NCBI RefSeq assembly: GCF_903944925.1
Contig: NZ_CAJATU010000123.1
Span: forward strand, 248,001-312,000
Direction of reading: 5' to 3'
Length of the DNA: 64,000 bases
From: an uncultured Rhodopila sp.
GTDB lineage: Bacteria; Pseudomonadota; Alphaproteobacteria; Acetobacterales; Acetobacteraceae
The notes below the pieces were generated by a model that saw only the letters and a program-made list of their open reading frames with translations, searched no databases and was not told the origin of the DNA. The translations under genes and the position numbers were made by a program. Positions 4,365 through 59,099 of this stretch are shown here, in pieces; position 1 is the first letter of the stretch, and every line of letters begins with the position of its first letter.

Positions 4365-5645
4365 TTGAACTCTCCGGCAAAAAAGGGGCACGCCATATCT
4401 CGAGGCCTAATAATTTTCGCACTGATCTGTGCGATGCCGGTTGCAGCTGCGCCTGCGCCGGCGGACCCGCCTGGTGGGCCTGTTAGATCCGGCACCGGTT
4501 TCGATGCTCCATCATTCGGTGCGGCACAGGGATACCCGGTGCCACCAACTGCATTCGACTTCGATCAGGCCAACATGGTTGGATACTACAGCCACTACGA
4601 TCAACTCCGGCAACTGCGGCGCGTGGCGCGGGGCGAAATGCCATCGAGCTTTCTGCGAAGCGCCACGGAGATCGTCCCGCGATATGCATACAATGGCCGC
4701 ACCAGCACCATCCACGACTATCTCGCCCGCAATCCCGTGACCGCTCTGTTGATTGCACGCGACAATACAATCCTGTTCGAGCACTATAATTATGCTCGCT
4801 CTGATAAAGACCGCTTCCTCTCACAGTCCATGGTGAAGACAATTACGGGCCTGCTGGTCGGCATCGCGGTCTCAGAGGGTGCAATTCACTCGGTCGACGA
4901 CGCCGTTGCAGTCTACGTACCGGAACTTGCCGGCACAGCTTACGGCGAAACATCAATCCGGGCCTTGCTGCACATGTCGTCCGGCATTGCTTATCACGAG
5001 ACTTATGGACCAGGCGACGACAGTTGGAAACTGGGCCTCGGCCTGATTGAGCGGGGAGCAGTGGCCGCCGTCGGTCAGTTCAACACCCGCGTCGCTCCGG
5101 CGGGAACACGGTGGAACTATTCCAGCGCCGACACGGAGATCCTCGGCCTTGTCGTCAGTCGCGCCGTTCATATGACGCTCTCCGATTATCTCAGCACACG
5201 CATCTGGGCCAAAATGGGAATGGAAGCGGACGCCGGCTGGGATGTCGACCGGTTCGGCCAGGAAATCGCATATTGCTGTTTCGTGGCGACGCTGCGGGAT
5301 TGGGGCCGGCTGGTGCTGATGCTGGCACATCACGGTGCATGGAATGGCCAGCAAATCGTGCCGCGACAATGGCTGGCCGATGCAACGAGCTTCACGCCCG
5401 AAACGCATTATCTCGCAGGTGGTGAACTTTTCGACTTTTGGGGTTATGGTTACCAAATGTGGATCTACCCGGGCGAACGTTTGATGTTTGCTCTTGCTGG
5501 AATTCACGGACAATGGGCGTTTGTTGATCCGGATAATGAACTGGTGATGGTGCAGACGGGAGTATATCTGCCGCCGACTGGCGATGCCCTGCTGGAGGCC
5601 GTGGCGCTGTGGAATGCGGTCGTGGCTGAATTTGGTAAACGCTAG
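4365..5645 (+). CDS. Serine hydrolase, class C beta-lactamase / penicillin-binding-protein fold
   Basis: A 426-aa exported serine hydrolase. The catalytic S-x-x-K is S-M-V-K (Ser155, Lys158 counted from 4365), the second motif is Y-S-S in RWNYSSADTE, and the third (KTG-like) position is H-G in LAGIHGQWAF, the arrangement of family VIII esterases, EstB-like hydrolases and D-Ala-D-Ala carboxypeptidase relatives. A signal peptide follows a TTG at 4365 (SRGLIIFALICAMPVAAAPA), which is why I place the start there; an in-frame ATG at 4218 is possible but adds about 49 residues of implausible Cys/Arg-rich sequence. Base composition is visibly less GC-rich than the operon that follows. Substrate is unknown; ester hydrolysis in the periplasm is the likeliest role. 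No operon partner. Confidence 0.8.
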   Translation: MNSPAKKGHAISRGLIIFALICAMPVAAAPAPADPPGGPVRSGTGFDAPSFGAAQGYPVPPTAFDFDQANMVGYYSHYDQLRQLRRVARGEMPSSFLRSATEIVPRYAYNGRTSTIHDYLARNPVTALLIARDNTILFEHYNYARSDKDRFLSQSMVKTITGLLVGIAVSEGAIHSVDDAVAVYVPELAGTAYGETSIRALLHMSSGIAYHETYGPGDDSWKLGLGLIERGAVAAVGQFNTRVAPAGTRWNYSSADTEILGLVVSRAVHMTLSDYLSTRIWAKMGMEADAGWDVDRFGQEIAYCCFVATLRDWGRLVLMLAHHGAWNGQQIVPRQWLADATSFTPETHYLAGGELFDFWGYGYQMWIYPGERLMFALAGIHGQWAFVDPDNELVMVQTGVYLPPTGDALLEAVALWNAVVAEFGKR

Positions 5646-6102: not shown

Positions 6103-6882
6103 ATGACTGATCGCTGGATGTTTCGACTCGGGCCACGCGCGGCGGTGGCTGAAGCTAACCTGATCTGCTTCCCTTATGCCGGTGGCGGCGCAGCGACCTT
6201 CCGGTTGTGGCCCGGCCGACTGCCGTCACAACTGGCGGTGTGGGTGGTTCGGTTGCCTGGGCGCGCAAGCCGGTTGGACGAACCCGCGGTCGCCGACATG
6301 GCAGCACTGGCCGACGGGATTGCCGAGGCAGTGACGGCTCGGGCCGATGTGCCGTTCATGTTTTTCGGCCACAGCATGGGTGCCGTGTTGGCCTGCGAGA
6401 CCGCGCATGCGCTGGCGCGGCGTCAGGCGCCGATGCCGCTTCACCTGATCGTCTCGGGTCGCCGGCCGCCCGGCATGCCAGGCATGGAAGCGCCCATTCA
6501 CCGGCTACCGGATGACGCCTTCATCGCCGCTGTCGGGGATCGCTACGGCGCCATCCCGGCGGAACTGATTCGGGAGCCCGAGGTGATGGCACTGATGCTG
6601 CCGGGCCTGCGCGCGGACTTCACTGCGCTGGAGACGTTTCAACCGGGTCCGCGGGCACCGCTGGATTGCCCGATCTCGGTGTTTGGTGGCGTGCATGACC
6701 GCCTCGCGCCACGCGCCCATCTTGAGGCATGGCGCGGTCAGACGACGGGGCCGGTCCGCCTGAGACTTTTCCCCGGTGGGCATTTCTATCTGAATGACCA
6801 GCACGCGGCGTTGCTGGCCGAGGTGTCCACGGTCGCTGCGCCGATGCTGCGCGACGCGGTGATGTCGGACGCGTCGGCATGA
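6103..6882 (+). CDS. Type II (editing) thioesterase
   Basis: A 259-aa alpha/beta hydrolase of the GrsT/RifR type II thioesterase family, which removes stalled or mis-primed acyl groups from PKS/NRPS carrier proteins in trans. Family features: N-terminal LICFPYAGGGAATF oxyanion-loop motif, nucleophile elbow G-H-S-M-G (Ser91 if started at 6103), an Asp in GGVHDRL and catalytic His in LFPGGHFYL. The start is uncertain (MTDRWMF at 6103 begins closest to the conserved domain; 6094, 6067 and 6007 are in frame). Its TGA overlaps the ATG of the first PKS (ATGA), so it is translationally coupled to the assembly line. It is first in the operon. It could in principle also release the product, but its lack of fusion to NRPS2 makes editing the default view. 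Confidence 0.9.
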   Translation: MTDRWMFRLGPRAAVAEANLICFPYAGGGAATFRLWPGRLPSQLAVWVVRLPGRASRLDEPAVADMAALADGIAEAVTARADVPFMFFGHSMGAVLACETAHALARRQAPMPLHLIVSGRRPPGMPGMEAPIHRLPDDAFIAAVGDRYGAIPAELIREPEVMALMLPGLRADFTALETFQPGPRAPLDCPISVFGGVHDRLAPRAHLEAWRGQTTGPVRLRLFPGGHFYLNDQHAALLAEVSTVAAPMLRDAVMSDASA

Positions 6883-9800
6883 GCGCGCGGCACGCGGCCG
6901 ACGACACGCAGGCCGTCGCCATTGTCGGCATCGGCTGCCGTTTCCCGGGCGGCATTGCCGATACCGATGCTTTCTGGCGGCGGCTGATCGCCGGGGATGA
7001 CGTCATCGCCGAGATCCCCGGCGATCGGATTGATGTCGCACACTATTTCAACGCCGAACCCGCCACACCCGGCCGCATGATGACCCGCCGTGGCGGCTTT
7101 CTCGACAGTATCGACACATTCGATGCCGACTTCTTCGGCATCTCGCCGCGCGAGGCGGAACGGCTGGATCCGCAACAGCGCCTGCTGCTTGAAACCGCGT
7201 GGGAGGCGCTGGAGGATGCCGGGCAGGACCTGCGCCGCCTCCAGGGCACACGCAGCGGCGTCTTCGTCGGCCAATGGCTCAGCGATTTCGAATCGCGTCT
7301 CTTCGGCGACCCCGAGGCCGTCGATTTCCAGATGACCACCGGCAGCGGCCGTTATGCCGCGTCGGGCCGGCTGTCGTATTTCCTCGGCTTGCGGGGGCCG
7401 AGCCTGACGATCGACACGGCGTGCTCGTCCTCGCTGGTGGCGGTTCACCTCGCGGTGCGCAGCATCCGCGCGGGCGAGAGCCGGCTGGCCCTGGCCGGCG
7501 GCGCCAACGTGATCCTGCAGCCGCACATCATGGTGGCGTATTCCCAAAGCCGGATGATGGCGCCCGACGGGCGATGCAAGTTCGGCGACGCCGGCGGCGA
7601 CGGCTATGTCCGCAGCGAGGGCGCCGGACTCGTCGTGTTGAAGCCGCTGCGCGATGCGCTGGACGATGGCGACCGGATTTACGCCGTGATCCGCGGCAGC
7701 GCGGTCAACAACGACGGCCGCAGCAGCGGCTCGATGGGTACGCCAAGCCGGATCGGGCAGGAAGAACTGTTGCGTGCCGCCTACGGCGATGCCGCAGTGC
7801 CGCCCGCGCAGGTGGCCTATGTCGAAGCGCACGGCACTGGCACCCGGGCGGGTGATCCGGTCGAACTCGCCGCCCTCGGTGCCGTCCTCGACGAAGGCCG
7901 GACGCCTGGCAGCCCCGCCTATGTCGGATCGGTCAAGACCAATATCGGCCATACCGAGGGCGCCGCCGGCATTGCCGGACTGATCAAGGCGACGCTCGCC
8001 TTGCACCATGGTCTCATTCCGCCAAGCCTGCATTGCCGCGACCTCAACCCGGTGGTCGCCTGGGCGGACATCCCGTGCCAAATTCCGCGTACACCCACGC
8101 CGTGGCCGAACACAGCGTCCCCTCGCCTCGCCGGCGTCAGCGCGTTCGGCATTGCCGGCACCAACGGCCATGTGGTCCTGGAGCAGGCTCCGGCGACCGA
8201 GACCGCGCCGCTCGCGGACTGCCATCGCCGGACGCAGCTCCTCCCGCTATCGGCGAAAAGCCCCGAGGCGTTGCGCGCGTTGGCCCAACGCTACGCCGAA
8301 CTGCTGTCCGGTGACGGGGCACCCGCGCTGCGCGATGTCTGCTGGAGCGCCGCGACGCGCCGGACGGCGCTGGACCATCGCGCGGCGTTCGTCGCCGGGG
8401 ACCGGGCCGCCATGGCCGATGCGCTGCGGCGCTATGCCTCCGGCGAACCCGCCGCGGCCGAGGGCGTGGTGCGCACCGACACACCGCCCCGCATCGCCTT
8501 CGTGCTGCCGGGTCAGGGCGCGCAGTGGATCGGCATGGGGCGCGAACTCATCGCCCTGGAACCGGTGTTCCGCGCCACGCTGGAACGCTGCGACAGGGCC
8601 GCGGGCCGCTTTGCCGGCTGGTCGATCATAGGACAGTTGGCTGCTGCCCCCGGGTCCGATGATGTCCTGCTCGACCGCATCGACGTGATCCAGCCGGTGC
8701 TCGTTGCCCTGGCGATCGCGTACGCGGAACTTCTCCGTTCGGTTGGCGTCGAACCGGATGCGGTCGTCGGCCATAGCATGGGTGAAGTGGCTGCGGCCTG
8801 CATCGCCGGCGCGCTTAGCCTCGATCAGGCCATGCAAGTGGTCTGCGCACGCAGCGCGCTGATGCGGCGGGTCAGCGGACAGGGCGCCATGGCGCTCGTG
8901 GATCTGCCCATGGCCGAGCTGCGCCGGCGCCTCGCCGGGCTGGAGGATCGGGTTTCGGTCGCGGCAAGTAACGGTCCAAGATCGAGCGTGATCTCCGGCG
9001 TGCCGGAGGCGGTGCAAGAGGTCATGGCCGGACTGAAGGAGGACGACGTGTTCTGTCGTCTGATCAAGGTCGATGTCGCATCGCACAGCCCGCAGATGAC
9101 GCCGCTGGCAGCGGCACTCGCCGCGGAGCTGGACGGCCTGACACCGGCATCCGCGCGCGTGCCGATCGTTTCGACGACGCTGGGCTGCCGCGCCGAGGGC
9201 CCGGCGTTTGACGCCGGCCACTGGGCGCGCAATCTGCGCGATCCGGTCCTGTTCAGCACGGCCGTAGGCTTGCTGGCCGAGGACGGGATCGGACTGTTTC
9301 TGGAACTGGGCCCGCATCCCGTCCTGCTGCCTTCGGTGCAGCAGACCCTGCCTGCAGCAACCACGATCGCGTTTGGATACCGGGACGAACCCGAGCAGCC
9401 GGCTTTCCTTACGGCCCTCGGGGCGCTTTGGACGGCCGGCTGGCCGCTCGACTGGCCGCGCGTTATGCCGGAACGGGGCAAGACGGTGCCGCTGCCACTC
9501 TACCCCTGGCAGCGTGAACGTTACTGGGTCGATGCGGCGGAAATGCGATCGGCTGGCGCCGCGCCCCGTTCGGCGGCCTCGCGACCCGACGAGGAGTCCC
9601 TAGGCTGGCTGTACCACCTGGAATGGAAGCCATCCGAGGTATCCGAGGCAAGTTCCGCCGCCGCGGCAACGCGCTGGCTTGTCGTGACCGGCGACGAAGC
9701 GATGGGCAGCGCCATTTCCGCCGCGCTGGCCACGTCCGGCGTTCTGTCGGACGTCGTGGCGATGCGGCATCTGGAGACCGCCCTGCGGGCGCAGGCATCC

Positions 9801-11465
9801 GCCGCGGCGCCGGCGCTCGGCGTGGTGGTGTTGGCCGAGGAAAACAAAGACGCCGCCTTCCTGCCGCTTCGCGTGCTCCAGTCGCATCTGTCAGCGGATG
9901 GGGGATCGAACCGGCTGCCGCGGTCGCGTTGCTGGTTCGTCACGCGTGGCGCGCACGCGGTGCTGCCGGACGGGACGGAACGCGTTTCCGTGGACCAGGC
10001 GGCGCTGTGGGGCGCCGGGCGCGTCGTTGCGGAGGAACATCCCGACTTCTGGGGCGGCCTGGTTGACCTTGATCCCGCCGCACCGCCCTCGTTCAATGCC
10101 GGTTTGCTGGCGCGGTTGTTGCTCGCCCCGGATGGGGAGGATCAGGTGGCCTTCCGGCAGGGCCGCCGCTACGCCCTGCGGCTGGTGCCAGCGGTTCCGG
10201 ACCGTGTCTCCAGCGCGCTGAAATGGCGGGAGGACGCAGCCTACCTGATCACCGGCGGGCTGGGCGGTGTCGGCCTGGAGATCGCCCGGGCGATGGCGGC
10301 CGGAGGCGCGCGGCGCCTTATTCTTGCGGGCCGCACGCCGTTACCCCCGCGCGAGCTATGGAGCGCGGAGCCCTCCGGGTCGCCGGCCGGACAGCGCATC
10401 GAAGCGGTGCGCGCGCTCGAGCTGATGGGTGTGGCCGTCCACACGCCCGCGATCGACATCAGTGACGAAACGGAACTGCGCAGCTTTCTCGATCGTTACA
10501 TGGCCGAGGGGTGGCCGCCGATCCGGGGCGTGATCCACGCGGCCGTGACGCTCGACAATCGCCTGGCGGGGTCGATGTCCGCCACGACATTCGAGTCAGT
10601 GGTTCGACCCAAGATGCGCGGAGCGCAACTGCTGGATCGGCTACTGCCGGATCTCGACATCTTCGTGCTGTTCTCATCGATCGGGGGGTTTCTCCCGCAC
10701 TCGGGGGTGGCGAATTACGCCGCCGCCAATGCCGGCCTTGATGCGCTGGCCCTGGATCGCCGCGCCAGGGGGCTACCGGCCTTGAGCATTGCCTGGGGGC
10801 CATGGGAAAATGCCGGTCTGGCCCTGGGCGAAGCCGGTGAGCACGCCGTCGCCGAGATGGGCCGTCTCGGCATTCAGGCCATGCCAACCGGGCGAGCCGC
10901 AGCACTGTTCCGCTGGTTGTGCGGCGGTTCGGTGGCGGCCGTGGCGGTGCTGCGGGCGGACTGGGCGAAATTCCAGCAGGCCCGATCAACGCGCCCCGGT
11001 TCGCTGTTCAAGGACCTGCTTGCGGGATTGACCGCGCAGGTGCTCGAGCCGTCGGCATTGCTTGGCCAACTCGCATCGGCCGACCCGGCGCAGCGGCGGC
11101 GAATACTCGAACCGTTGGTTCGCAGCGCTGTCGGCCAGGTGTTGAAAATTGCGCCCGCCCGCCTCGATGGCCGGAAATCGCTTGGCAACATGGGCCTCAG
11201 TTCGCTCATGGCGATCGAGTTGCGGAACCGGCTCGAAACCGTCCTGGGCCGCCCGCTTTCGGCGACGCTGGCCTGGAACTATCCGACGATCGAGGCGATC
11301 GTCGGCGTCCTTGCCGAAGACAAACCGGACGCTCCGCGCGCCATCATGCCCGCAGTCCCGGGAGATGGGGACGAACTGACCGAATCGCTGGCCGCCGTGG
11401 CGTCGCTGTCGGACGAAGCCGCCATGCTCGCGCTGCTTGGCCAACCTGCCGGCGGCGCGGCATGA
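6879..11465 (+). CDS. Type I PKS 1: KS-AT-KR-ACP, methylmalonyl-type AT
   Basis: A 1528-aa single-module polyketide synthase. KS about 12-435 with Cys182 in TACSSS, EAHGTGT and NIGHTEG. AT about 538-835 with Ser633 in GHSMGEVAA and the specificity motif V-A-S-H-S (735-736 = S-H), a pattern seen in methylmalonyl-CoA-loading ATs such as mycobacterial Mas. KR about 1120-1300 with NADPH motif TGGLGGVG and Tyr1280 in YAAAN; the LDD position reads L-D-N, B-type-like. ACP about 1405-1475 with Ser1442 in G-L-S-S-L, where the usual Asp before the Ser is replaced by Ser. No DH or ER, so it should leave an alpha-methyl-beta-hydroxy unit. Unlike PKS2-PKS6 it has no N-terminal docking helix (KS begins at residue 13), consistent with being the first module. 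The KS keeps its Cys, so it is not a KSQ loading domain; the starter is unknown. Confidence 0.93.
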   Translation: MSARHAADDTQAVAIVGIGCRFPGGIADTDAFWRRLIAGDDVIAEIPGDRIDVAHYFNAEPATPGRMMTRRGGFLDSIDTFDADFFGISPREAERLDPQQRLLLETAWEALEDAGQDLRRLQGTRSGVFVGQWLSDFESRLFGDPEAVDFQMTTGSGRYAASGRLSYFLGLRGPSLTIDTACSSSLVAVHLAVRSIRAGESRLALAGGANVILQPHIMVAYSQSRMMAPDGRCKFGDAGGDGYVRSEGAGLVVLKPLRDALDDGDRIYAVIRGSAVNNDGRSSGSMGTPSRIGQEELLRAAYGDAAVPPAQVAYVEAHGTGTRAGDPVELAALGAVLDEGRTPGSPAYVGSVKTNIGHTEGAAGIAGLIKATLALHHGLIPPSLHCRDLNPVVAWADIPCQIPRTPTPWPNTASPRLAGVSAFGIAGTNGHVVLEQAPATETAPLADCHRRTQLLPLSAKSPEALRALAQRYAELLSGDGAPALRDVCWSAATRRTALDHRAAFVAGDRAAMADALRRYASGEPAAAEGVVRTDTPPRIAFVLPGQGAQWIGMGRELIALEPVFRATLERCDRAAGRFAGWSIIGQLAAAPGSDDVLLDRIDVIQPVLVALAIAYAELLRSVGVEPDAVVGHSMGEVAAACIAGALSLDQAMQVVCARSALMRRVSGQGAMALVDLPMAELRRRLAGLEDRVSVAASNGPRSSVISGVPEAVQEVMAGLKEDDVFCRLIKVDVASHSPQMTPLAAALAAELDGLTPASARVPIVSTTLGCRAEGPAFDAGHWARNLRDPVLFSTAVGLLAEDGIGLFLELGPHPVLLPSVQQTLPAATTIAFGYRDEPEQPAFLTALGALWTAGWPLDWPRVMPERGKTVPLPLYPWQRERYWVDAAEMRSAGAAPRSAASRPDEESLGWLYHLEWKPSEVSEASSAAAATRWLVVTGDEAMGSAISAALATSGVLSDVVAMRHLETALRAQASAAAPALGVVVLAEENKDAAFLPLRVLQSHLSADGGSNRLPRSRCWFVTRGAHAVLPDGTERVSVDQAALWGAGRVVAEEHPDFWGGLVDLDPAAPPSFNAGLLARLLLAPDGEDQVAFRQGRRYALRLVPAVPDRVSSALKWREDAAYLITGGLGGVGLEIARAMAAGGARRLILAGRTPLPPRELWSAEPSGSPAGQRIEAVRALELMGVAVHTPAIDISDETELRSFLDRYMAEGWPPIRGVIHAAVTLDNRLAGSMSATTFESVVRPKMRGAQLLDRLLPDLDIFVLFSSIGGFLPHSGVANYAAANAGLDALALDRRARGLPALSIAWGPWENAGLALGEAGEHAVAEMGRLGIQAMPTGRAAALFRWLCGGSVAAVAVLRADWAKFQQARSTRPGSLFKDLLAGLTAQVLEPSALLGQLASADPAQRRRILEPLVRSAVGQVLKIAPARLDGRKSLGNMGLSSLMAIELRNRLETVLGRPLSATLAWNYPTIEAIVGVLAEDKPDAPRAIMPAVPGDGDELTESLAAVASLSDEAAMLALLGQPAGGAA

Positions 11466-14400
11466 ACGACGCACCGTCCCCATTCGCCGGCGTATCGGCG
11501 CTCAAGCTTGCGCTTATGGCGAAGCAGGTGCGCGCCCGGGCGGCCGGGGCGCTGCAATCCGATCCGATCGCCATCGTCGGCATGGGGTGCCGCCTGCCCG
11601 GGGGAGCGGATACGCCGGATCGTTTCTGGCGGCTGATGCAAGACGGTGTTTGCGCCGTGCGGGATGTCCCGCCCGATCGCTGGGATGGCAATGGCTGGTA
11701 TGATCCGGACCTGTCCGCACCGGGCAAGACCGTTACGAAATCCGGCGGCTTCCTCGATCGCATCGACGCGTTCGATGCGGGTTACTTCGGCATTCCGCCG
11801 CGCGAGGCGGACCGGATGGATCCGCAGCAGCGCCTGTTCCTGGAAGTCGCCATCGAGGCCCTCGACGACGCGGGGCTTTCCCGGGACATGCTGGCCGGTT
11901 CCCGCACCGGCGTGTTTGTCGCCAGCTATCACAACGACTACGCGCAGATGCAGTTCAGCGATCCGGACGGGATCGACCTGCGGACCTTGACCGGCACGCT
12001 GCATAGCGTCCTGGCCAATCGCCTGTCGTATTTCCTGGACCTTCGCGGCCCCAGCATCTCCATCGACACGGCCTGTTCGGCATCGTTGGTGGCGGTTCAC
12101 CTGGCCTGCCAAAGCCTGCGCCTGGGCGAGAGCACTATCGCGGTCACCGGCGGCGTTTCGCTGATGATCGCGCCGCAATTGCTGGTATCGATGTCGAAGG
12201 TCGGGTTCATGGCGCCGGATGGCCGCTGCAAGACCTTCGATGCACAGGCCGATGGCTTCGGCCGCGGCGAAGGGTGCAGCGTCGTTGTGCTGAAGCGCCT
12301 GTCCGACGCGATCACCGATGGCGACCGGGTGCTGGCGGTCATTCGCGGCTCGGCCGTCAACCAGGACGGCCATTCAACGCTGCTGACGGCACCAAGCGGC
12401 CCGGCGCAACAGGCCCTGATCCGGGACGCCCTGGCCTGCGCGCAGATCTCGCCCGACCGGATCGGCTTCGTCGAGACGCACGGAACCGGCACGGCCCTCG
12501 GCGACCCCATCGAGGTCGAGGCGATCGCCCGGACGATCGGGCAGCCGTCGCCGGGCAGTCCCGCGTGCCTGCTGGGCTCCGTCAAGGCCAACGTCGGGCA
12601 TTTGGAGGCGGCGGCCGGGGCGACCGGCCTGATCAAGGCGGTGCTTGCGCTCCAGCACGAGGCGGTGCCGAACCAGGTCGGCTATCATAAGCTGAACCCG
12701 CATATCGATCTGACCGGCACGCGGCTGGACGTGCCGGCGACTCTCACGCCCTGGCCGGCGGGACCGGTGGCACGCTGCGCGGCGGTGAGTTCCTTCGGGG
12801 TTGGCGGCACCAACGCCCACGTCATCCTCGAGGAGGCGCCCAGCCTTCCGGCGGCGGCGACACGCGGGCAGGCGCCAGCGGCGCCGGACGACTGCCATCT
12901 GCTGACCCTGTCGGCGAAAACGCCCGAGGCACTGCGCGACACCGTGCGGGCGTGGACGGATTTCCTCGCCGAAACGCCCGCCTCGCCGGGCGACTTGTGC
13001 TTTACCGCCTCGCAGCGGAGGACCCGCCATGAGGTTCGCGTCGCCGTCATCGGCCGAACGCGTGCCGAACTGCGGGAGCGGCTTCAGGACCATCTGGCGC
13101 AGCCCGTCCGTGCGGCGGCCACTCGCCCGGGTATCTGTTTCGTTTTCGGTGGACAAGGGCCGCAGTGGTACGCCATGGGCCAGGAATTGCTGGCCCGGGA
13201 GGCGGTGTTTCGTGCCGCCGTAACCGAATGCGATGCCCTGCTGCGGCCGCTGTCGGGCTGGTCGTTGCTCGACGAACTGGCAATGCCCGCGGACCGGTCG
13301 CGGCTGGACCAGACGGAAGTCGCCCAGCCCGCCTTGTTCGCGCTACAGGTGGCCCTCGCCGCGTTGTGGCGGTCATGGGGCGTGCCGCCGGATGCCGTTG
13401 TCGGCCACAGCGTGGGCGAGATCGCCGCCTACCATGTGGCGGGCGTCCTGCCGCTGGAAGAAGCGGTGCGGATCGTCTGGCATCGGGGCCGGATCATGCA
13501 GCGTGCGACCGGCCAGGGCCGCATGGCATCGGTGGGTTTATCCGAGGCTGACGCGCTCGCGCTCGCGGCGCCCTTCGGTGACCGCCTGAGTGTCGGCGCC
13601 ATCAACGAGCCGGCCAGCGTCGTGCTGTCGGGCGATCCGGCAGCGGTGGACTCGGCGCTCGCAACACTCACGTCACGCGGCATCACGCATCGGCTGCTGC
13701 CGGTGCAGTATGCGTTCCACAGCGCGCAGATGGCGCCGCTGCGGCAGCCGCTGATGGATGCGCTCGCCGAGATACGCAGCCTGCCGCTGCAGGTGCCCGT
13801 TTATTCGACGGTGACGGGCGCGGCGGCGGACGGCGTGATGCTCGACGCCGGCTACTTTGCGCGCAACATGCGCCAGCCGGTTCGCTTCGCCGCGGCGATC
13901 GCCGCCGCGAATGTCGATGGCTGCAACCTGTTCCTCGAAATGTCGCCGCACCCGGTGCTCGGCCATTCGATCGCGGCATGCCTGGCTTCCCGGGATCTCG
14001 AACCGGTTGTCCTGGCCTCGCTTCGCCGCGGTCGGCCGGAGCGCGAGACCATGCTGCTGGCCTGCGCGGGCCTATACGCGGCGGGCTGCGACCTGAACTG
14101 GAAGCTGGTTCAGCCAAGCGCGGGGTCGGTGGTGACCCTGCCCGGCTATTGTTGGCAGCGCACCCGCCACTGGATCCGCCCGCGACCGGACGCAACCGGC
14201 GCCCCGGGTGCCGCTGGCGAGTGGCACCCCTTGGTCGGGCGCCGGATCGCGGTGGCCGGCATCGACGCGGATGTCTTCGAGGGCGGATCGCAGCTTGCGT
14301 CAGGCTGGCTGGCGGACCACCGCGTGTTCGGACGTTTGCTGCTTCCCGGCGCGGCGATGCTGGAGATGCTGGCCGCGGCAGTCGGCAAGGCGATGTCATG

Positions 14401-29017: not shown

Positions 29018-29018
29018 C

Positions 29019-52500: not shown

Positions 52501-52887
52501 CAGACGCTGCCCGAGTACATGATCCCCTCGGTTTTTGTCGCCCTGGATGTGCTGCCGATGACGCCGAATGGCAAGGTGGATGTGCGGTCTTTACCGGATC
52601 CGTTCCGGAATGCCGCCGGCCTGCCAGCGACTTTCCAGGCGCCGGCCCCCGGGCTGGAAGAACTGATCGCCGGCATATGGCGGGACCTGCTGCAAACCGA
52701 TCGGATCAGTGCGGATGATAATTTCTTCGAGGTGGGCGGACATTCCCTGCTGTCGCTCCGTGTGACCGCGGCCATCGAACGGCAGACCGGGTGCCGCATT
52801 CAGCCACGCATCCTGTTCTTCCAAACCCTCCGTCAGGTCGCCGCCGCCGTCCAGCGGAAGCAGAGCGAGCGTATAACCGCACGATGA
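49573..52887 (+). CDS. NRPS 2: TubC-C-A-PCP, predicted glycine, last module
   Basis: A 1104-aa synthetase with a TTG start supported by a strong ribosome binding site. TubC-type docking domain (1-55, QLVARLRSLGVGITASGERL), C domain (70-495) with H204-H205-x3-D209 in H-H-I-A-M-D-E-W (Glu replaces the usual Gly after Asp), A domain (515-990), PCP (1025-1095, Ser1058 in VGGHSLL). A-domain motifs: A3 reads YTSGSTGRP-N-G, with Asn677 in place of the usual Lys; A4 FDIAALELY; A5 NLYGPTE; A10 PNGKVD with the catalytic Lys kept. The pocket read against GrsA is D-I-L-Q-L-G-L-I-W-K, a glycine-type code. The protein ends soon after the PCP with no TE, reductase or terminal C domain, although it is the last module. 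Its stop overlaps the start of the first alpha/beta hydrolase (ATGA), pointing to those hydrolases for release. Confidence 0.93.
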   Translation: MSAGQLVARLRSLGVGITASGERLRITAPRGGLTEQIKQAITAQKAELLDLLAEEPADSSDQLVAISRARPLPLSSFQQRLWVLHRLEPESTAYNMVTAWPIPVALDAEQAERAIRTVLGDHEILRATFRDDGLAPGIHLLSPEAVPVAIRDLRDHTETDQANAIRADISIATLAPFELAAEAPVRWTVYQLSPDRVAVLAAAHHIAMDEWSFSLLRRGLEAACGSIAAGTALLPPPALQYADYAAWQRRTRNDATLAADLAWWEAKLAGIPQICSFPVDRSTTESQSGSTCLFAWDADLVADLRALLRREGATPYMALIAVCATVLRAYTGQGDIVLGSPMGMRERAEFESMIGPFVNLLVLRLDLSDDPTFSTLLTRAREAVLDAHDHRQAPFEGLVERLAPARSFDRSPLFQVAVVLHNASEESTSPIDSGGAIHDLTWFAREVDGRIEGSLEFRSDLFNRSTIERITTHLQSAVRAMVRDPDRRISQISLLTAAERTRLIEQFNATAQELDPAPFTVQFERQAVLRPDSPAICFEGQELTYGTLNRRANQLARYLGSLGLGRGSLVGVCLNRSLTMVTTLLAVQKAGATYVPLDPGFPVDRLRFMLADSGLAALVASDEIAGGLDVPARVQIISVERDVSACDTRDASDLGTEIHADDVAYVIYTSGSTGRPNGVAVSHGALSNFLGAMRCAPGLAASDVIAAVTTASFDIAALELYLPLTVGARVELVASDVATDGIALAQCLSTANVTVLQATPSTWRLLIEAGWQGRAGFRALCGGETLPADLANAILPKVDALWNLYGPTETTIWSTAERVADGEAAISIGRPIANTAVYVLDSEGQPAGIGIPGEIWIGGAGVAAGYHQRPELTSARFAADPFAPAPGARMYRTGDLGRFGDDGRLFHMGRIDRQVKLRGFRIELGEVEAALETHPAVARAVAVARNPGSDHPRLVAYVVYRPAESLTASEARAHLRQTLPEYMIPSVFVALDVLPMTPNGKVDVRSLPDPFRNAAGLPATFQAPAPGLEELIAGIWRDLLQTDRISADDNFFEVGGHSLLSLRVTAAIERQTGCRIQPRILFFQTLRQVAAAVQRKQSERITAR

Positions 52888-53672
52888 CCCCATTTTTCTT
52901 TGGATCATCGGATCGGCAACTATTCGGTATCTACGAGGCGGCGCGGTGCGCGCCCGTCAAAGGCGCCGCGGTGCTGTGCCACCCGTGGGGCCCCGAATAT
53001 ATCCACGCGCACCGGTCGTTGCGCCAGCTATCGAACATGCTGGCGGCCGCCGGTTTTCACACCTTGCGCTTCGACTACTTTGGCACCGGCGATTCTGCCG
53101 GTGACATGACCGAGGCACGGCTGGCCGGCTGGGAAGCCGACATTCGGACGGCGATGTCGGAACTTCTGGACATCACGGGCGCGAGGCAGGTCTCGCTGGT
53201 CGGATTGCGCCTCGGGGCGGCACTTGCCGCCACTATAGCGATCACAGCAGGCGCCAAGGTCAGGTCACTGGTGCTGTGGGATCCGGTGCTGCGCGGCGAG
53301 GAGCATGTTCGCGAACTGCACCTTGAATCCCCGCCGGGCGAGAAAGCGATCAAGCCGCGACCGAGGGCGCCGGAAGACGGCGGCGGATATGATATCCTGG
53401 GCTTTCCATTGACGGACCAGATAGAGTCCGAAATGAAAGCGCTCGACCTCATCGCTTTGGCTCCTGCTTTGCCGGCGCGCAGCCTTATTGTGGCGTCTCA
53501 CCCGCTGCCATCTCATGACGGCTTGCGGCGGGTGCTGGATGAAAATAAACGGGACCAGGCAATCGAGTTTATTGCCGATCATCCTCCCTGGATCGAGTTG
53601 CCGTTAGGCCATCCGCTCTCGGGCGCCGCACCGGTCAAGGTGTTGCGGCGTATCGTCGAGTGGCTGGCATGA
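52884..53672 (+). CDS. Alpha/beta hydrolase-fold protein with GLRLG elbow (exosortase A-associated hydrolase 2-like)
   Basis: A 262-aa alpha/beta-hydrolase-fold protein. The oxyanion segment (GAAVLCHPWGPEYIHAHRSL), the strand/loop LRFDYFGTGDSAG and the elbow region SLVGLRLGAALAATIA are clear. The nucleophile position of GxSxG is occupied by Arg (G-L-R-L-G), as I recall for the family annotated exosortase A system-associated hydrolase 2, so classical Ser hydrolysis is doubtful. Start at the ATGA overlap with NRPS2; stop overlaps the next hydrolase start (ATGA), so the two probably work together. Plausible roles are product release, acyl transfer, or a non-catalytic partner of the following hydrolase. 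Cytosolic: no signal peptide. Confidence 0.85.
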   Translation: MTPFFFGSSDRQLFGIYEAARCAPVKGAAVLCHPWGPEYIHAHRSLRQLSNMLAAAGFHTLRFDYFGTGDSAGDMTEARLAGWEADIRTAMSELLDITGARQVSLVGLRLGAALAATIAITAGAKVRSLVLWDPVLRGEEHVRELHLESPPGEKAIKPRPRAPEDGGGYDILGFPLTDQIESEMKALDLIALAPALPARSLIVASHPLPSHDGLRRVLDENKRDQAIEFIADHPPWIELPLGHPLSGAAPVKVLRRIVEWLA

Positions 53673-54607
53673 GCGCCAAAATCGTCAACCAAGCCGTAAC
53701 GATCGGCCGGCGGCAGTCCCTGGTCGGGATCGTTACGCAACCCGCCGGATACGTCCCGTCTGGCCGCCCGGTATGCGTCATCCTGAACTCAGGTATCATT
53801 CACCGCGTCGGTCACCACCGGATGTACGTCGCTCTTGCCCGCATGCTCGCCGCGGCCGGCAGCCAGGTGTTGCGCTTCGATCTCTCCGGGATCGGCGATA
53901 GCGAAAACCGGTTGGACGGATTGTCTCCGCTGGATGCAGCGATCGCGGACATAAGGGAGGCTGTTGACTGGCTCGCGACCTCAAAATCTGCGCAGCGAAT
54001 CATCTTGATCGGGCTGTGCTCCGGCGCGGACCATGCGCTGATCTACGGAAGTTCGGACCCGCGCGTCGCCGGGCTCGTGCTGCTGGATCCATCTATCCCG
54101 CCGACGCTGCAGTATTACTGTCGCTATTTCGCTCGGCATTTGCGGCAGCCCAAGTCATGGGGCGACATGCTGATCGGGCGAGGTCGGGTGTGGAACTGGA
54201 TTCGAAAGTTTCTTGGCGACAGGTCCGAGGAAGTTCTGGAGAGTCATCGTATCAAACTCGGCGACCCGGCTGTCAGGGCCTACCTGGAGAGCGCTTACCG
54301 CAGGACCATGAACCTGGGTACACAGTGCCAGGCTGTCTTCACGTCCGGCTTCCCGCATCAGCACAATTACCGGCGTCAGATCCTGGACGCATTTCCCTCG
54401 GTCCCATTCGAAGGTCAGCTTCGCCTGGATTACTTTGACGGCTGCGATCACGTGTTTACGTCCGAAGCCGACCGGAAGCGGTTGTTCGGCGTCATCATGA
54501 AGTGGATCCAGCAGCCGGGCTTTGTCGAGACATTGCCGGCCGCGACCACAGGCGAGGCGGCTTCGGCAAAGGATCTGCAAATGCAGCACGCCTCGCATGG
54601 CACCTGA
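53669..54607 (+). CDS. Alpha/beta hydrolase with GLCSG elbow (exosortase A-associated hydrolase 1-like)
   Basis: A 312-aa alpha/beta hydrolase. Conserved segments: CVILNSGIIHRVGHHRMYV (oxyanion/N-terminal motif), LRFDLSGIGDS, elbow IILIGLCSGADHALIYG, DPRVAGLVLLD, and a late D-G-C-D-H-V-F containing the likely catalytic His. At the GxSxG position the sequence is G-L-C-S-G, so Cys is the candidate nucleophile; exosortase A system-associated hydrolase 1 proteins have a similar GLCxG elbow. It starts at an ATGA overlap with the preceding Arg-elbow protein and overlaps the flippase gene by 11 nt. Being the only one of the pair with a plausible nucleophile, it is the best candidate in the operon for a stand-alone chain-releasing enzyme, by hydrolysis or transfer to another acceptor. 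That is inference from position. Confidence 0.85.
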   Translation: MSAKIVNQAVTIGRRQSLVGIVTQPAGYVPSGRPVCVILNSGIIHRVGHHRMYVALARMLAAAGSQVLRFDLSGIGDSENRLDGLSPLDAAIADIREAVDWLATSKSAQRIILIGLCSGADHALIYGSSDPRVAGLVLLDPSIPPTLQYYCRYFARHLRQPKSWGDMLIGRGRVWNWIRKFLGDRSEEVLESHRIKLGDPAVRAYLESAYRRTMNLGTQCQAVFTSGFPHQHNYRRQILDAFPSVPFEGQLRLDYFDGCDHVFTSEADRKRLFGVIMKWIQQPGFVETLPAATTGEAASAKDLQMQHASHGT

Positions 54608-56165
54608 AGCCCGCGAGGCTGCGCCCGGCAAGCCCGGCCACTTCGGCACCGCAAAGCGGTCGTCGATCAGCGCTCCGCCGGGGCAGACACTGAGGCGCTC
54701 GCTGCTGTTCGCGACGGCCGGCCGCTACATTGTGACGGCCGCCGGTCTCATATCCACCGTCATCCTGGCGCGCTTGCTGACCCCTTCGGCATTCGGCATA
54801 TCGGTGCTCGGAACCGCCATCCTGGCTATCGCGGAAGCGATCCGTGAACTCGGCTCGATCGCATATCTCGTTCAACAAAAAGACCTTACGCTAGCGAAGG
54901 TGCGGACCGTCTTTTCGATCAGCCTCACCGTGACCCTGGTCATCGCGACTTTGCTCATAGCCGTGTCGGAGCCGCTGGCGGGCCTGTTTGACGAGCCGGG
55001 CTTGAGTCAGTACCTGCGCATCATAGCCCTCAGTTATGCGATCGCACCGTTTGCGCATCCAATCTATGCCTTGCTCAGTAGAGACATGGCGTTCGCGACG
55101 CTTGCCGGGATCGACATATTGACCACGATGGCGAATTCTGCTGCTGCCATCTATCTCGTGCGACTTGGCTTTGGCTATCTCGGCATCGCATGGGCTGCGG
55201 TCATCTCCAATGCGGTCTGGACACTGGCAGGCTTTTGCGTGCGTCGGGATTTCTCGATCTATCGTCCGTCGCTATCCGAATGGCGGAGCGTACTTTCATT
55301 CGGTGCGTACGGCAGCGCGACCGCTCTTCTCTATAAAGCCTCGGAGTCGTTTTTCTATCTCATTCTTGGCGGGCTTCTGGATGCACGCGCCGTTGCGCTT
55401 TGCCAGCGAGCCGTCATGCTGTCGCAGTTCCCCGAACGCGTCATTCTGGCGGGCGTCGGCGCCGTGGCGTTGCCAGCGTTCTCTGAGCACGCGCGGGGCG
55501 AAAAGGACCTGAAGGCCGCATACCTCGCTGCAATTGAGCATATCACCGCCATTCAATGGCCCGCTCTCATTCTCCTGGGTATCTTTGCCGGCCCTCTCGT
55601 GTCAGCGTTGCTTGGCCCGCAATGGAGCGACGTCGTATCAATCACGCGTATCTTTGCGGTTGCATTTGCATTCAACTTTCCCACCGGTCTGAACTATCCG
55701 ATACAAGTCGCGGTTGGTGCCATCAAACAAACGGTCGCTCTTGCAATTATTCAGACGGTTATCTCTTTGGCAACGTTGGCTTTCGCTGCCCAGTTCGGGC
55801 TTGTCGCCGTTGCGCTGAGCGCATGCATCACGACCCCGATCAATGTCGCTTTATCCGTTCGACTCGTGCGCAAACATATCCCCTTTCAACTACGCGAGCT
55901 TGCACGAGCCGTGTGGCGGAGTGCAGTGATATCGGGATTGAGTGCCGTGGGCCCGCTGGCCATTGCTGTTGGCATCGATGGTCGGGCCGTCTTACCGGTC
56001 ACGCTGCTGGCGTCGGCAGCATTCTCGGCGGGAATTGGCTGGATCTTCGGCCTGTGGCTCGTCAGCCATCCATTGTTCGAGGAACTGTCGCGTGCGCGGG
56101 CATTCGGTTTCGGGATCAGCGGCTTGAAGCGGTCCGTTAGCCACTTGCCGCTACGTAGCCCATGA
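54597..56165 (+). CDS. Polysaccharide/lipid flippase, Wzx/MATE (MOP superfamily) type
   Basis: A 522-aa integral inner-membrane protein with about 12-14 predicted helices, for example FATAGRYIVTAAGLISTVIL near residue 40, VFSISLTVTLVIATLLIAV, ALILLGIFAGPLVSALLGPQW, and paired C-terminal helices. The opening pattern (first helix followed by ARLLTPSAFGISVLG) is typical of Wzx/RfbX-like oligosaccharide-lipid flippases of the MOP superfamily, as are the mid-protein SESFFYLILGGLLDARAVAL and PAFSEHARGEKDLKAAYL segments. It overlaps the second hydrolase by 11 nt, so it belongs to the operon and is the only transporter there; it may move the product or a lipid-linked form across the membrane. No glycosyltransferase or polymerase lies in the window, which is unusual for a Wzx homologue. 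The 40-residue N-terminal tail before the first helix is Ala/Pro-rich. Confidence 0.88.
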   Translation: MAPEAREAAPGKPGHFGTAKRSSISAPPGQTLRRSLLFATAGRYIVTAAGLISTVILARLLTPSAFGISVLGTAILAIAEAIRELGSIAYLVQQKDLTLAKVRTVFSISLTVTLVIATLLIAVSEPLAGLFDEPGLSQYLRIIALSYAIAPFAHPIYALLSRDMAFATLAGIDILTTMANSAAAIYLVRLGFGYLGIAWAAVISNAVWTLAGFCVRRDFSIYRPSLSEWRSVLSFGAYGSATALLYKASESFFYLILGGLLDARAVALCQRAVMLSQFPERVILAGVGAVALPAFSEHARGEKDLKAAYLAAIEHITAIQWPALILLGIFAGPLVSALLGPQWSDVVSITRIFAVAFAFNFPTGLNYPIQVAVGAIKQTVALAIIQTVISLATLAFAAQFGLVAVALSACITTPINVALSVRLVRKHIPFQLRELARAVWRSAVISGLSAVGPLAIAVGIDGRAVLPVTLLASAAFSAGIGWIFGLWLVSHPLFEELSRARAFGFGISGLKRSVSHLPLRSP

Positions 56166-56202
56166 TGGCCCGGCGAACCAAGGCAGCGGCGCGGAGCCGT
56201 TC

Positions 56203-56886
56203 ATGATCGAGCACCTGTTGCCGCGCGAGGTTGCGGCTGCCGCGGCCCGGGGCGATGATCCGCTCGCTGTCCTGTTTCCGGAAGAGGCGGCGCAAATCCA
56301 CGGAGCGATTGAAAGCAGGGTGCGGGAGTTTGCGACAGGCCGAGCCTGCGCGAGAATGGCGCTGCGAAAACTGCATCTGCCACCGGTATCCATCCCAAGG
56401 GGGGCCACGCGGGAACCGGTGTGGCCGGACGGTGTCGTCGGAAGTATTACGCATTGCAGGGGGTATCGCGCGGCAGCCGCGGCGATGCGTACGAGCATAG
56501 CCACGATTGGAATCGATGCTGAGACAGACGAACCGCTGCCGCCCGGCACGCTCGAGCAAATAGCCGTAGCGCAGGAGCATGACTGGCTCACCGCGGCACC
56601 GCCGGGTGTGCATTGGGATCGGGTCCTGTTCAGCGCAAAAGAAAGCGTATTCAAGGCCTGGTTCCCGGTTGCGGGAACCTGGCTGGGCTTCGAGGATGCG
56701 ATCGTAACGATACAGCCAGGCAGCGGCACATTCCATGCCCGCATACTCACCCCGGTGCCATCGCAGGTCCGGTGCGATGCGATAACATTCGGCGGACGCT
56801 TTATGGTGCGGGCTGGGCTCATCCTCACTGCGATTGTCGTGAGGGCCGGGGGTGGCATTGCCCCATACCGCGATCCGATGGCGTGA
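56203..56886 (+). CDS. 4'-phosphopantetheinyl transferase (Sfp/EntD type)
   Basis: A 227-aa phosphopantetheinyl transferase that would convert the nine carrier domains of this operon from apo to holo form using CoA. Diagnostic motifs: [12 protein letters not shown] near residue 45, [15 protein letters not shown], the Mg-binding G-I-D-A-E, and [11 protein letters not shown]. The R-EFATGR-CAR and [11 protein letters not shown] arrangement puts it with EntD/PcpS-like enzymes. GGAG lies 6 nt before the ATG at 56203. It follows the flippase by 37 nt and precedes the mutase by 17 nt, so it is part of the same transcription unit and likely dedicated to it. Confidence 0.92.
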
Positions 56887-56903
56887 CGGTCAGGAGAAAT
56901 CCC

Positions 56904-59099
56904 TTGGTAGAATTCCCTAAACACACCATTGCCGACTGGCAGCGGCTCGCAGCCAAAGAGCTGAAGGGCGCATCACCGAGTACACTAACCCGAACCACAC
57001 GCGACGGGATCGTCGTCAAGCCACTCTATACACCGGACGATCTCGAAGGACTTGCGACCCTCGACACGCTGCCTGGCTTCGCGCCGTTCGTCAGAGGCCT
57101 CCGTGCCACCATGTATGCTAATAGGCCCTGGACGATCCGACAATATGCGGGCTTCGCGACCGCGGAAGAATCCAACACCTTCTATAAGAAGAACCTCGGT
57201 GCGGGACAGACGGGCCTGTCGGTCGCTTTCGATCTCGCAACACATCGCGGCTATGACAGTGACCATCCGCGGGTCGCGGGCGATGTCGGCAAAGCCGGCG
57301 TGGCAATCGATTCGGTAGAGGATATGAAGATCCTGTTCAGCGACATTCCACTTGACCAGATGAGCGTGTCGATGACCATGAACGGCGCCGTATTGCCGGT
57401 ACTGGCCAGTTATATCGTCGCGGGGATCGAGCAGGGTGCACGTCTCGACCAGCTCTCGGGGACCATCCAGAATGATATCCTCAAGGAATTTATGGTCCGC
57501 AACACCTACATATATCCGCCGGTTCCGTCGATGCGTATTGTCGGGGACGTCATGGAGTACACGGCGCAGTACATGCCGAGATTCAACTCGATCTCGATAT
57601 CCGGCTATCATATGCAGGAGGCCGGTGCCACCGCGGTGCAGGAACTGGCCTACACGCTGGCCGACGGCCTGGAATATGTGCGCGCCGCCCTCACCAGGGG
57701 GCTGGCGGTCGATGCCTTCGCGCCACGTCTCTCGTTCTTCTTCGGTATTGGTATGAATTTCTTCATGGAGGTTGCGAAGCTCCGGGCTGCTCGCCTGCTT
57801 TGGGCGGAGCTCATGACTGAATTCTCACCCGGGAAGCCGGCGAGCCTGGAGCTCCGCACCCATTGCCAGACCTCGGGTATCTCACTGACGGCGGAGGACC
57901 CTTGCAACAATGTGGTGCGTACGACGATCGAAGCCATGGCTGCGGTATTGGGGGGAACCCAGTCACTCCATACCAATTCGTTCGATGAGGCGTTAGCCCT
58001 GCCCACGACGACCGCAGCGCGCATTGCGCGCAACACGCAACTGATCATCGCGGAAGAGACCGATATTCCCCACGTGGTCGATCCATTAGGCGGCTCCTAC
58101 TATATCGAACATCTAACGGCGAGCCTTGCCGCGGCGGCCCGGGATCTGATCAGGGAGATCGAGACCCTGGGCGGTATGACGAAGGCCATCGCATCCGGGA
58201 TGCCCAAGCTCCGTATCGAGCAGGAGATGGTTCGACAGCAGGCACGCCTCGACCGCGGCGAGGAGGTGGTTGTTGGGGTTAACAAGTATCGGTGCGCCGA
58301 AGCGTCCAAGGTCAGCGCCCGGGAGGTGGACAATGCCAAAGTCCGGGAACAACAGATCCGGCGGCTGGAACAGATTCGTGCCACCCGTGAGCCGCAGGTG
58401 GTTGATGCATGCCTCGCTGCGTTGACCAAGGCGGCGCGGACCGGTGACGGCAATCTACTGGCGCTCGCGGTCGAAGCGATGAAGGCACGCGCCACCGTCG
58501 GCGAGGTATCAGAAGCGCTTGAGCGCGTCTTCACCCGCCACACGGCAGAGATCCAGTCGGTGTCGGGAGTTTACGCATCAGCCTACGAGGGCGACCGGAA
58601 CTTCGAGCGCATCCGCGCCGAGGTGGACGCTTTTGCCAAGGCGGAAGGCCGTCAACCTCGGATTCTGGTGACCAAGCTGGGTCAGGACGGACACGATCGC
58701 GGCGCGAAGGTCGTTGCAACCGCTTTTGCCGATATCGGCTTCAATGTGGATCTCGGGCCCTTGTTCCAGACACCCGAAGAAGCCGCCCGGCAGGCGATCG
58801 AGAGTGATGTGCATGTCATCGGCGTATCGAGCCAGGCGGGTGGCCACATGACCTTGGTGCCTGCACTGATCAAAGCACTGAAGGACGCTGGCGCCGATGA
58901 CATTCTGGTGGCGTGCGGTGGAGTCATTCCGGCGCACGATTTGCCGGCGCTTATGGCGGCCGGCGTCGTTGCGGTCTATGGTCCTGGCACCAATATTCTC
59001 GCAGCCGCCGCCAATATTCTCGGTATAATTCAAGACAAGGGCAATAGACAGTCCATCTGGCCATATAATCATCGCCGAAGGGCAGTGGACGTCGCATAG
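56904..59099 (+). CDS. Methylmalonyl-CoA mutase, B12-dependent
   Basis: A 731-aa adenosylcobalamin-dependent methylmalonyl-CoA mutase carrying both the TIM-barrel substrate domain (about 30-560) and the C-terminal B12-binding domain. Substrate-domain signatures include [20 protein letters not shown], the block ending at [28 protein letters not shown] and [13 protein letters not shown]. The cobalamin lower-ligand motif D-x-H-x-x-G is [10 protein letters not shown], with the later GGVIPAHD. It interconverts succinyl-CoA and (R)-methylmalonyl-CoA. The start is a TTG at 56904 with AGGAG 7 nt upstream; the frame is open further back to 56613 but those codons overlap the PPTase gene. It is last in the operon, suggesting it supplies the extender of the VASH-type AT in PKS1. 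No epimerase or MeaB-type chaperone lies in the window, so it may also serve central metabolism. Confidence 0.93.

What the first reader, a model, noticed from the sequence alone, without database searches (positions are those of the whole stretch)
6103..59099. A 53-kb operon encoding a one-module-per-protein PKS/NRPS line ending in acyl-Gly-(hydroxybutyryl)-Gly
Fifteen same-strand genes overlap or lie within about 40 nt of each other. Domain order predicts: methyl-branched hydroxy unit, saturated C2, alpha-methyl keto unit, saturated C2, an ambiguous methylated/ketoreduced step, an enoyl unit, Gly, C2 with hydroxyl, Gly. I do not recognise this architecture as a known pathway; that is a memory-limited statement. 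The product class would be a C-methylated lipopeptide with a statine-like 4-amino-3-hydroxybutyryl-glycine end.
Basis: partly seen in the sequence, partly recalled or inferred. Interest (0 to 1): 0.82.

Follow-up and report, generated by a model that had tools for sequence, protein, structure and literature searches.

The report
Assembly-line operon with unusual release enzymes
A 53-kb set of fifteen genes encodes a factory for an unknown lipid-like molecule ending in two glycines, and it lacks the usual built-in release enzyme, carrying instead a pair of hydrolase-like proteins that recurs beside glycine-ending factories in other bacteria.

Summary
In detail: fifteen same-strand genes, overlapping or at most 37 nt apart, encode a cis-AT PKS/NRPS line with one module per protein. 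Corrections: the M5 acyltransferase is degenerate, N7 has two condensation domains, N9 has no thioesterase. Both A domains carry Gly-type codes, so the acyl-Gly-(hydroxybutyryl)-Gly end is well supported. The line is not unique: Heliomarina baculiformis has a colinear relative.

The new point is the end. After N9 come AB1, with Arg at the nucleophile position (119 of 120 aligned sequences), and AB2, with a Cys nucleophile (119 of 120). In 28 other loci with a pair, Arg is kept in 28 and Cys in 27; in 12 both are fused. NRPS ends followed by the pair had a Gly-type code in 8 of 8, others in 27 of 67. A Variovorax copy adjoins exopolysaccharide genes. I propose that AB1/AB2 off-load the Gly-ended chain in trans, perhaps onto a surface acceptor, and that the flippase exports it. 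Acceptor, starter and product are unknown; nothing was tested at the bench.

The parts
6103..6882 (+). TEII: type II thioesterase (GHSMG), probably editing
   Evidence: PF00975 5e-44; start choice
6879..11465 (+). M1: KS-AT(VASH, methylmalonyl-type)-KR-ACP; KS has its Cys, no loading domain
11462..18055 (+). M2: KS-AT(YAFH)-DH-ER-KR-ACP
18055..22473 (+). M3: KS-AT(YAAH)-MT-ACP, no KR: alpha-methyl beta-keto unit
22388..29017 (+). M4: KS-AT(HAFH)-DH(HxxxD variant)-ER-KR-ACP
29019..34565 (+). M5: KS-(AT degenerate: GDADG, about 90 residues missing)-MT-KR-ACP
34562..40117 (+). M6: KS-AT(HAFH)-DH-KR-ACP, enoyl unit
40096..45066 (+). N7: TubC_N-C(HHIAVDAW)-TubC_N-C(HHIVSDGW)-A(Gly-type code)-PCP
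45059..49576 (+). M8: KS-AT(HAFH)-KR-PCP, adds C2 with beta-hydroxyl to Gly
49573..52887 (+). N9: TubC_N-C-A(Gly-type code)-PCP, ends 11 residues after the PCP domain; no TE
52884..53672 (+). AB1: hydr2_PEP-like alpha/beta pseudo-hydrolase, Arg109 at the nucleophile position
53669..54607 (+). AB2: hydr1_PEP-like alpha/beta hydrolase, Cys117 nucleophile; His261 and Asp140 conserved
54597..56165 (+). FLP: MOP/Wzx-type polysaccharide flippase
   Evidence: PF13440 4.7e-49; PRK10459 159 bits, below its cut-off of 273
56203..56886 (+). PPT: 4'-phosphopantetheinyl transferase, Npt/PptT-like (below those models' cut-offs)
56883..59099 (+). MCM: single-chain methylmalonyl-CoA mutase with B12 domain; the genome has another mutase locus

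Best explanation
A cis-AT hybrid PKS/NRPS line (M1-M6, N7, M8, N9) builds a C-methylated acyl chain and ends it as acyl-Gly-(3-hydroxybutyryl)-Gly on the last PCP. The domains are shown; the unit calls follow from motifs. M1 is loaded with an unknown starter from outside (inferred). M5 is loaded in trans or skipped (inferred). Since N9 has no thioesterase, the chain is off-loaded in trans: it moves from the N9 PCP to Cys117 of AB2, held in a heterodimer with the pseudo-hydrolase AB1, and from there to an acceptor or water (inferred). The Wzx-type flippase carries the product out (inferred). The extra mutase supplies methylmalonyl-CoA for M1 and the PPTase activates the carriers (inferred from family).
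For: Domains and spacing. No TE on N9, while two hydrolase genes follow, the first overlapping its end by 4 nt. AB2 Cys117 in 119 of 120 and His261 in 118 of 120 aligned sequences; AB1 Arg109 in 119 of 120. Of 28 other loci with a pair listed, 28 have Arg and 27 have Cys; in 12 both lie in one frame, which suggests that they work together. Three more pairs looked at (Variovorax, two Azospirillum) all have Arg and Cys, and the two from Azospirillum are fused. Pair and terminal NRPS travel together: 21 of 120 listed N9-family contig lengths recur exactly among 120 listed AB1-family contig lengths, against 0.2 in a jittered control. ORFs ending A-PCP with the pair downstream: 8 of 8 Gly-type code; without: 27 of 67 (Fisher p 0.0036 leaving out 8 unreadable codes, 0.013 with the three Corallococcus counted once). 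The last A domains of G883, G711, G800, L082 and L143 also fit the rule. Colinear relative in Heliomarina with the same terminal N7-M8-N9-AB1-AB2 order, a TEII, a flippase and a PPTase. Cys thioesterases in NRPS release are known: ObiF (PMC6668435, passages), SulM (PMC11298585, passages). The pair also lies beside other carrier-protein systems: Azospirillum ACP and amino acid-ACP ligase loci and an exosortase-type ligase locus.
Against: No biochemical evidence for AB1/AB2. AB2 could be an editing enzyme. The Gly association comes from loci found with a Gly-activating protein as query, my four-position rule for a Gly-type code was set after seeing the codes, and 27 Gly-ended ORFs in the sample have no pair nearby (some may pass the chain to a next protein; not checked). 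In L091 the AB2 Cys is lost. In G800 the pair lies upstream of the NRPS. In Variovorax the line ends PCP-C-PCP rather than A-PCP. Flippase homologues were found in only some NRPS-linked loci. M5's degenerate AT leaves the chain length uncertain.
Confidence: 0.6

Rival explanations
1. The product is a free secreted lipopeptide acid: AB2 is a plain stand-alone thioesterase, AB1 an inert chaperone, and the flippase an ordinary exporter.
For: Foldseek and PDB profile matches of both proteins are general alpha/beta hydrolases, mostly esterases and lipases. No glycosyltransferase was found in the operon.
Against: Arg and Cys at the nucleophile positions are kept in nearly all aligned homologues, which plain hydrolysis would not need; an exopolysaccharide neighbourhood in Variovorax.
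Confidence: 0.3
2. The chain is transferred by AB1/AB2 to a lipid-linked sugar or other envelope acceptor and flipped by the Wzx-like protein, so the product decorates the cell surface.
For: Variovorax paradoxus: NRPS-NRPS-PPTase-AB1-AB2 followed by polysaccharide export, autokinase, sugar transferase, GDP-fucose and glycosyltransferase genes. Flippase homologues at 42-48% in the loci L029, L121 and G883. An exosortase-type locus and a DltB-like locus with the pair. An acyltransferase and a Wzy-like gene in the Hydrogenophaga locus, a glycosyltransferase in the Calditrichia locus.
Against: No glycosyltransferase in this operon; no acceptor known; no flippase homologue was labelled in L032, L054, L070 or L082, whose loci are limited in length.
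Confidence: 0.3
3. The cluster is decaying: M5 has lost its AT and the line no longer makes a full product.
For: M5 AT motif lost with a large internal deletion.
Against: The nine synthase frames are open; M5 keeps KS Cys, MT, KR and ACP motifs, and no other domain was seen to be truncated; Heliomarina M5 has an intact AT, so the loss is confined to one domain here.
Confidence: 0.12

Closest known systems
Heliomarina baculiformis T40-3 cluster (record named; region read); uncharacterised as far as I could see
   Same: M1-M3 domain strings identical, one module per protein, KS identities 65, 67, 63, 69 and 72% for M1, M2, M3, M4, M8; TEII, flippase, PPTase, N7-M8-N9-AB1-AB2
   Different: PKS genes on the other strand from N7-M8-N9; M4 has an added MT, M5 a DH and an intact AT, M6 an ER; N7 has a single C domain; PPTase is HetI-like; no mutase labelled in the 70 kb annotated
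Exosortase A-associated hydrolases 1 and 2 (TIGR03100, TIGR03101)
   Same: Nearest profiles of AB2 and AB1; same Cys/Arg elbow pattern in the exosortase-type pair L110 (= L139) and in L116 (= L127); neighbour of a carrier-type ligase and a decarboxylase in L139
   Different: Window scores 100 and 103 bits against cut-offs 168 and 203; linked to a PKS/NRPS; the genome's XrtA is on another contig
Stigmatellin and aurafuron synthases (recalled, no paper read)
   Same: One module per protein, cis-AT (recalled)
   Different: Myxobacterial; no sequence comparison made
Cysteine thioesterases of obafluorin (ObiF) and sulfazecin (SulM) NRPSs (passages read)
   Same: Cys nucleophile in a thioesterase that off-loads an NRPS chain
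   Different: Those are in-line domains and close small rings; here the enzyme is a separate protein with a pseudo-hydrolase partner

Membership tests
Modular cis-AT type I PKS / NRPS hybrid | KS, AT and carrier in each PKS module; C, A, PCP in each NRPS module | tested here: met
   exception: the M5 AT is degenerate
Modular cis-AT type I PKS / NRPS hybrid | Active-site motifs present (KS Cys, AT GHSxG, carrier Ser, C HHxxxD) | tested here: met
   except the M5 AT; the Gly after HHxxxD is Ala in the first N7 C and Glu in the N9 C
Modular cis-AT type I PKS / NRPS hybrid | Terminal release domain (TE or R), usual but not universal | tested here: not met
   N9 ends after its PCP; separate hydrolases follow
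Exosortase A-associated hydrolase 2 (TIGR03101), AB1 | Score above curated cut-off | tested here: not met
   102.9 against 202.75 bits
Exosortase A-associated hydrolase 1 (TIGR03100), AB2 | Score above curated cut-off | tested here: not met
   100.5 against 168.45 bits
Exosortase A-associated hydrolases | Located with exosortase and its ligase | tested here: not met
   XrtA is at G000:C110, the window in C123
Glycine-activating A domains | Specificity code of the Gly type | tested here: met
   N7 DILQLGMIW, N9 DILQLGLIW; code meaning recalled
Stigmatellin-type one-module-per-protein PKS | Sequence relatedness to that cluster | not testable with these tools
   no collection of characterised clusters on hand
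Cysteine-type release thioesterase | Cys nucleophile with conserved His and acid | tested here: met
   Cys117 119/120, His261 118/120, Asp140 119/120; triad geometry not measured, and which Asp serves is not shown
Cysteine-type release thioesterase | Off-loads a carrier-bound chain | not testable with these tools
   needs an enzyme assay

The most novel reading that the evidence does not exclude
The AB1/AB2 pair (hydr2/hydr1 relatives; Arg pseudo-hydrolase plus Cys hydrolase) is a general device that takes glycine-ended or glycyl thioesters off carrier proteins and transfers them to an envelope acceptor. It would serve NRPS/PKS lines, exosortase loci and amino acid-ACP ligase loci alike. This operon would then be an assembly line for a surface-attached polyketide-peptide rather than a free metabolite.
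Probability: 0.25. Interest if true: 0.85.

Novelty: new variant of a known kind. Interest (0 to 1): 0.55.

Why it matters
The exosortase-associated hydrolases 1 and 2 are 'hypothetical equivalogs' in NCBIfam, and my searches showed no paper assigning them a function. Their recurrence as a Cys/Arg pair beside carrier proteins, and next to Gly-ended assembly lines without a thioesterase, gives a concrete, testable function for both. It would also show how a group of PKS/NRPS lines releases its product, and whether some such products end up on the cell surface.

Tried and rejected
Organism: no 16S was found in the assembly. I first took the family for Burkholderiaceae from its spread of genome sizes. 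The flanking muconate cycloisomerase is 78% identical to Roseomonas mucosa and 72% to Azospirillum ramasamyi, so an Acetobacteraceae-like alphaproteobacterium is more likely; this rests on one gene (a second flanking gene had no match) and is not settled.

Used further: L029, L032, L049, L054, L055, L058, L070, L082 (AB pair) and L009 (tandem C).

Tandem C of N7: I considered a C-E type pair. Of the other tandem cases, L028, L036, L083 and L085 look like such pairs by recalled motifs, L027 is unclear, and L059 and L009 look like two C domains before one A. L009 has a TubC_N-like linker between them as N7 has; L059 gave no such match. The role is unexplained.

Fold searches for AB1 and AB2 gave only general alpha/beta hydrolases. 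A tree of AB2 relatives (28 rows; 7 of the 26 loci offered gave no row under my length and Cys-motif filter: L130-L134, L142, L144) needs two changes for the NRPS label and has weak deep forks, so the number of recruitments is not settled.

Papers: held no paper with the terms; I saw the listings only, and nothing in them pointed to this system; two searches gave background. From PMC9850573 (passages) I took nothing. Not in this library does not mean not in print.
Full report
What is there. The window is G000:C123:248001-312000 of a 7.0-Mb, 200-contig assembly. From 6103 to 59099 fifteen + strand genes follow each other with gaps of -86 to +37 nt, ten of the fourteen between -8 and +1. Pfam and NCBIfam give a type II thioesterase, six PKS modules on six proteins, an NRPS, a PKS module, an NRPS, two alpha/beta hydrolases, a MOP flippase, a PPTase and a methylmalonyl-CoA mutase. 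GC is 64-70% from 6 to 40 kb, against 58-65% in the flanks. The three other genomes of the genus that were listed had no close AB2 homologue (best E 2.3e-6), so the cluster looks accessory at that level.

Domain details. The KS domains keep their Cys, so M1 is an extension module and its starter comes from elsewhere. AT motifs read VASH in M1 (methylmalonyl-type by recalled rules), YAFH in M2, YAAH in M3 and HAFH in M4, M6 and M8. The M4 DH has Asp in place of Gly in HxxxG. N7 carries two C domains, each preceded by a TubC_N docking domain. The second C is the counterpart of the single Heliomarina C (41%; the first 30%). The order C-TubC_N-C-A-PCP also occurs in a Gemmatimonadetes locus, L009, after a PKS module.

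The end of the line. A-domain codes were read by position: N7 DILQLGMIW and N9 DILQLGLIW, the Gly type by recalled tables. M8 has KR and no DH. N9 stops after its PCP, without TE or R domain.

The hydrolase pair. AB1 and AB2 are nearest to the exosortase A-associated hydrolase 2 and 1 families, both below the curated cut-offs. AB1 has G-L-R-L-G at the nucleophile elbow; Arg is kept in 119 of 120 sequences (window plus the 119 other listed homologues), and no His after residue 150 is equally conserved (106 and 68 of 120 for the best). AB2 has G-L-C-S-G; Cys is kept in 119 of 120, His261 in 118 and Asp140 in 119. Both models are alpha/beta hydrolases (mean pLDDT 82 for AB2, 89 for AB1), with no close solved relative. 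Across 28 other loci with a pair (window copies, re-fetches of the same loci and the unpaired hits L096, L102 and L108 not counted; some loci, such as three Corallococcus, are close kin), Arg is present in 28 and Cys in 27 (L091 is the exception); in 12 (L090-L095, L097-L101, L109) one frame holds both. One search adds Variovorax and two Azospirillum pairs, all with Arg and Cys, the Azospirillum ones fused in proteins of 591 and 592 residues.

Where the pair occurs. NRPS-linked: L029 Heliomarina, L032 Calditrichia, L049 Hydrogenophaga, L054/L055/L058 Corallococcus, L070 Desulfoluna, L082 Myxococcales, L121 (G027), G883, G711 and G800. In G800 the pair lies upstream of the NRPS. In Variovorax paradoxus VAI-C it follows two NRPS genes and a PPTase and is followed by polysaccharide export, autokinase, sugar transferase and glycosyltransferase genes; that line ends C-A-PCP-C-PCP without a TE. 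Elsewhere: beside an exosortase-type ligase and decarboxylase, with a hydrolase 2 over its cut-off (L139); fused, beside a DltB-like protein, an AMP-forming ligase and a FabG-like reductase (L133); and fused in Azospirillum in one gene row with an ACP and an amino acid-ACP ligase. In the sampled species genomes it is rare: with AB2 as query, 1 of 199 other family members had a strong match (G027, E 3.9e-81; the next was 5.3e-16); at E 1e-20, 4 of 384 others in the class sample and 5 of 397 others in the phylum sample. In the protein collection 817 AB2 relatives reach E 1e-3 and the 120 listed are 44% or more identical over the aligned part where I aligned them (59 of the 119 others were in that alignment).

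Glycine association. Among the 79 loci plus L121 and L143, eight ORFs end A-PCP with the pair within 4 kb downstream and all eight have a Gly-type code (D, I, Q, G at four positions; the Heliomarina one is the variant DIVQIGGIY); of 67 ORFs without the pair 27 do. L082 and L143 were not among the eight because of longer tails. Excluding eight unreadable codes Fisher p is 0.0036; counting the Corallococcus trio once it is 0.013. The sample was drawn with a Gly-activating protein, which raises the share of Gly in both groups, and the rule was set after the codes had been seen; the result is suggestive rather than proven.

The nearest relative. Heliomarina baculiformis C36 carries TEII, M1-M6, flippase and PPTase on one strand and N7, M8, N9, AB1, AB2 on the other. 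Best KS matches are colinear for M1-M4 and M8 (63-72%); M5 and M6 pair less clearly (M5 to hM4 62%, hM5 59%; M6 to hM5 57%, hM6 56%). M4-M6 differ in reductive and methylating domains, so the products should share both ends and differ in the middle.

How it probably works. Shown: the genes, the domains, the missing TE, the conserved Cys/Arg pair and its linkage to terminal NRPS genes (21 shared contig lengths among 120 against 120). Inferred: that AB2 takes the chain from the N9 PCP on Cys117 with AB1 as partner, and that the flippase exports it. In ObiF the Cys is tied to release by ring closure, and the paper speaks of dominant hydrolysis in the Cys-to-Ser mutant (PMC6668435, passages); SulM also uses Cys (PMC11298585, passages). 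An earlier genomic survey predicted transacylase-like enzymes, alpha/beta hydrolases among them, that take chains off ACPs in small carrier-protein loci (PMC2922099, passages). The acceptor is open. The exopolysaccharide, DltB-like and exosortase-type neighbourhoods point to the envelope; the operon itself has no glycosyltransferase. The mutase beside the PPTase is an extra copy (another mutase locus is at C77), which fits methylmalonyl-CoA supply for M1.

Novelty. One-module-per-protein lines are known (recalled: stigmatellin, aurafuron). New here, as far as I could see, are the architecture as a conserved family in two lineages and the trans-acting Cys/Arg pair at the end of Gly-ended lines. 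I rate it a new variant of a known kind. Product, starter, M5 loading, tandem C role and acceptor remain open.

Noticed in passing
L142 14182-15957 and L144 11182-12960 (Azospirillum plasmids): A fused AB1-AB2 protein with the Arg and Cys elbows lies in a conserved row with an ACP, an acyl-CoA dehydrogenase, an amino acid-ACP ligase, DUF1839 and a GH2 protein.
   Followed up: partly
L133 6181-13236 and L136 7266-11287: A fused AB1-AB2 protein lies with an AMP-forming ligase and an SDR-type reductase, in L133 also with a DltB-like protein: looks like an uncharacterised surface acylation locus.
   Followed up: partly
L143 1093-30843 (Variovorax paradoxus VAI-C megaplasmid): Two NRPS genes, a PPTase and the AB1/AB2 pair directly next to a row of exopolysaccharide genes; the last NRPS has a C-PCP unit without an A domain.
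   Followed up: partly
window 40096-45066; L009 10393-15249: Tandem C domains separated by a second TubC_N docking domain before one A domain, each after a PKS module; L059 also has two C domains before one A, without a TubC_N match. Role unexplained.
   Followed up: partly
G000:C110:73199-73966: The genome has an XrtA exosortase over its cut-off but no close hydrolase-1 relative outside the window cluster.
   Followed up: no
L091 (G143:C1): A fused AB1-AB2 protein in which the otherwise conserved Cys is replaced (GIGAG).
   Followed up: no
window 3894-5645: A beta-lactamase-fold (PF00144) hydrolase just upstream of the operon on the same strand, separated by about 450 nt.
   Followed up: no
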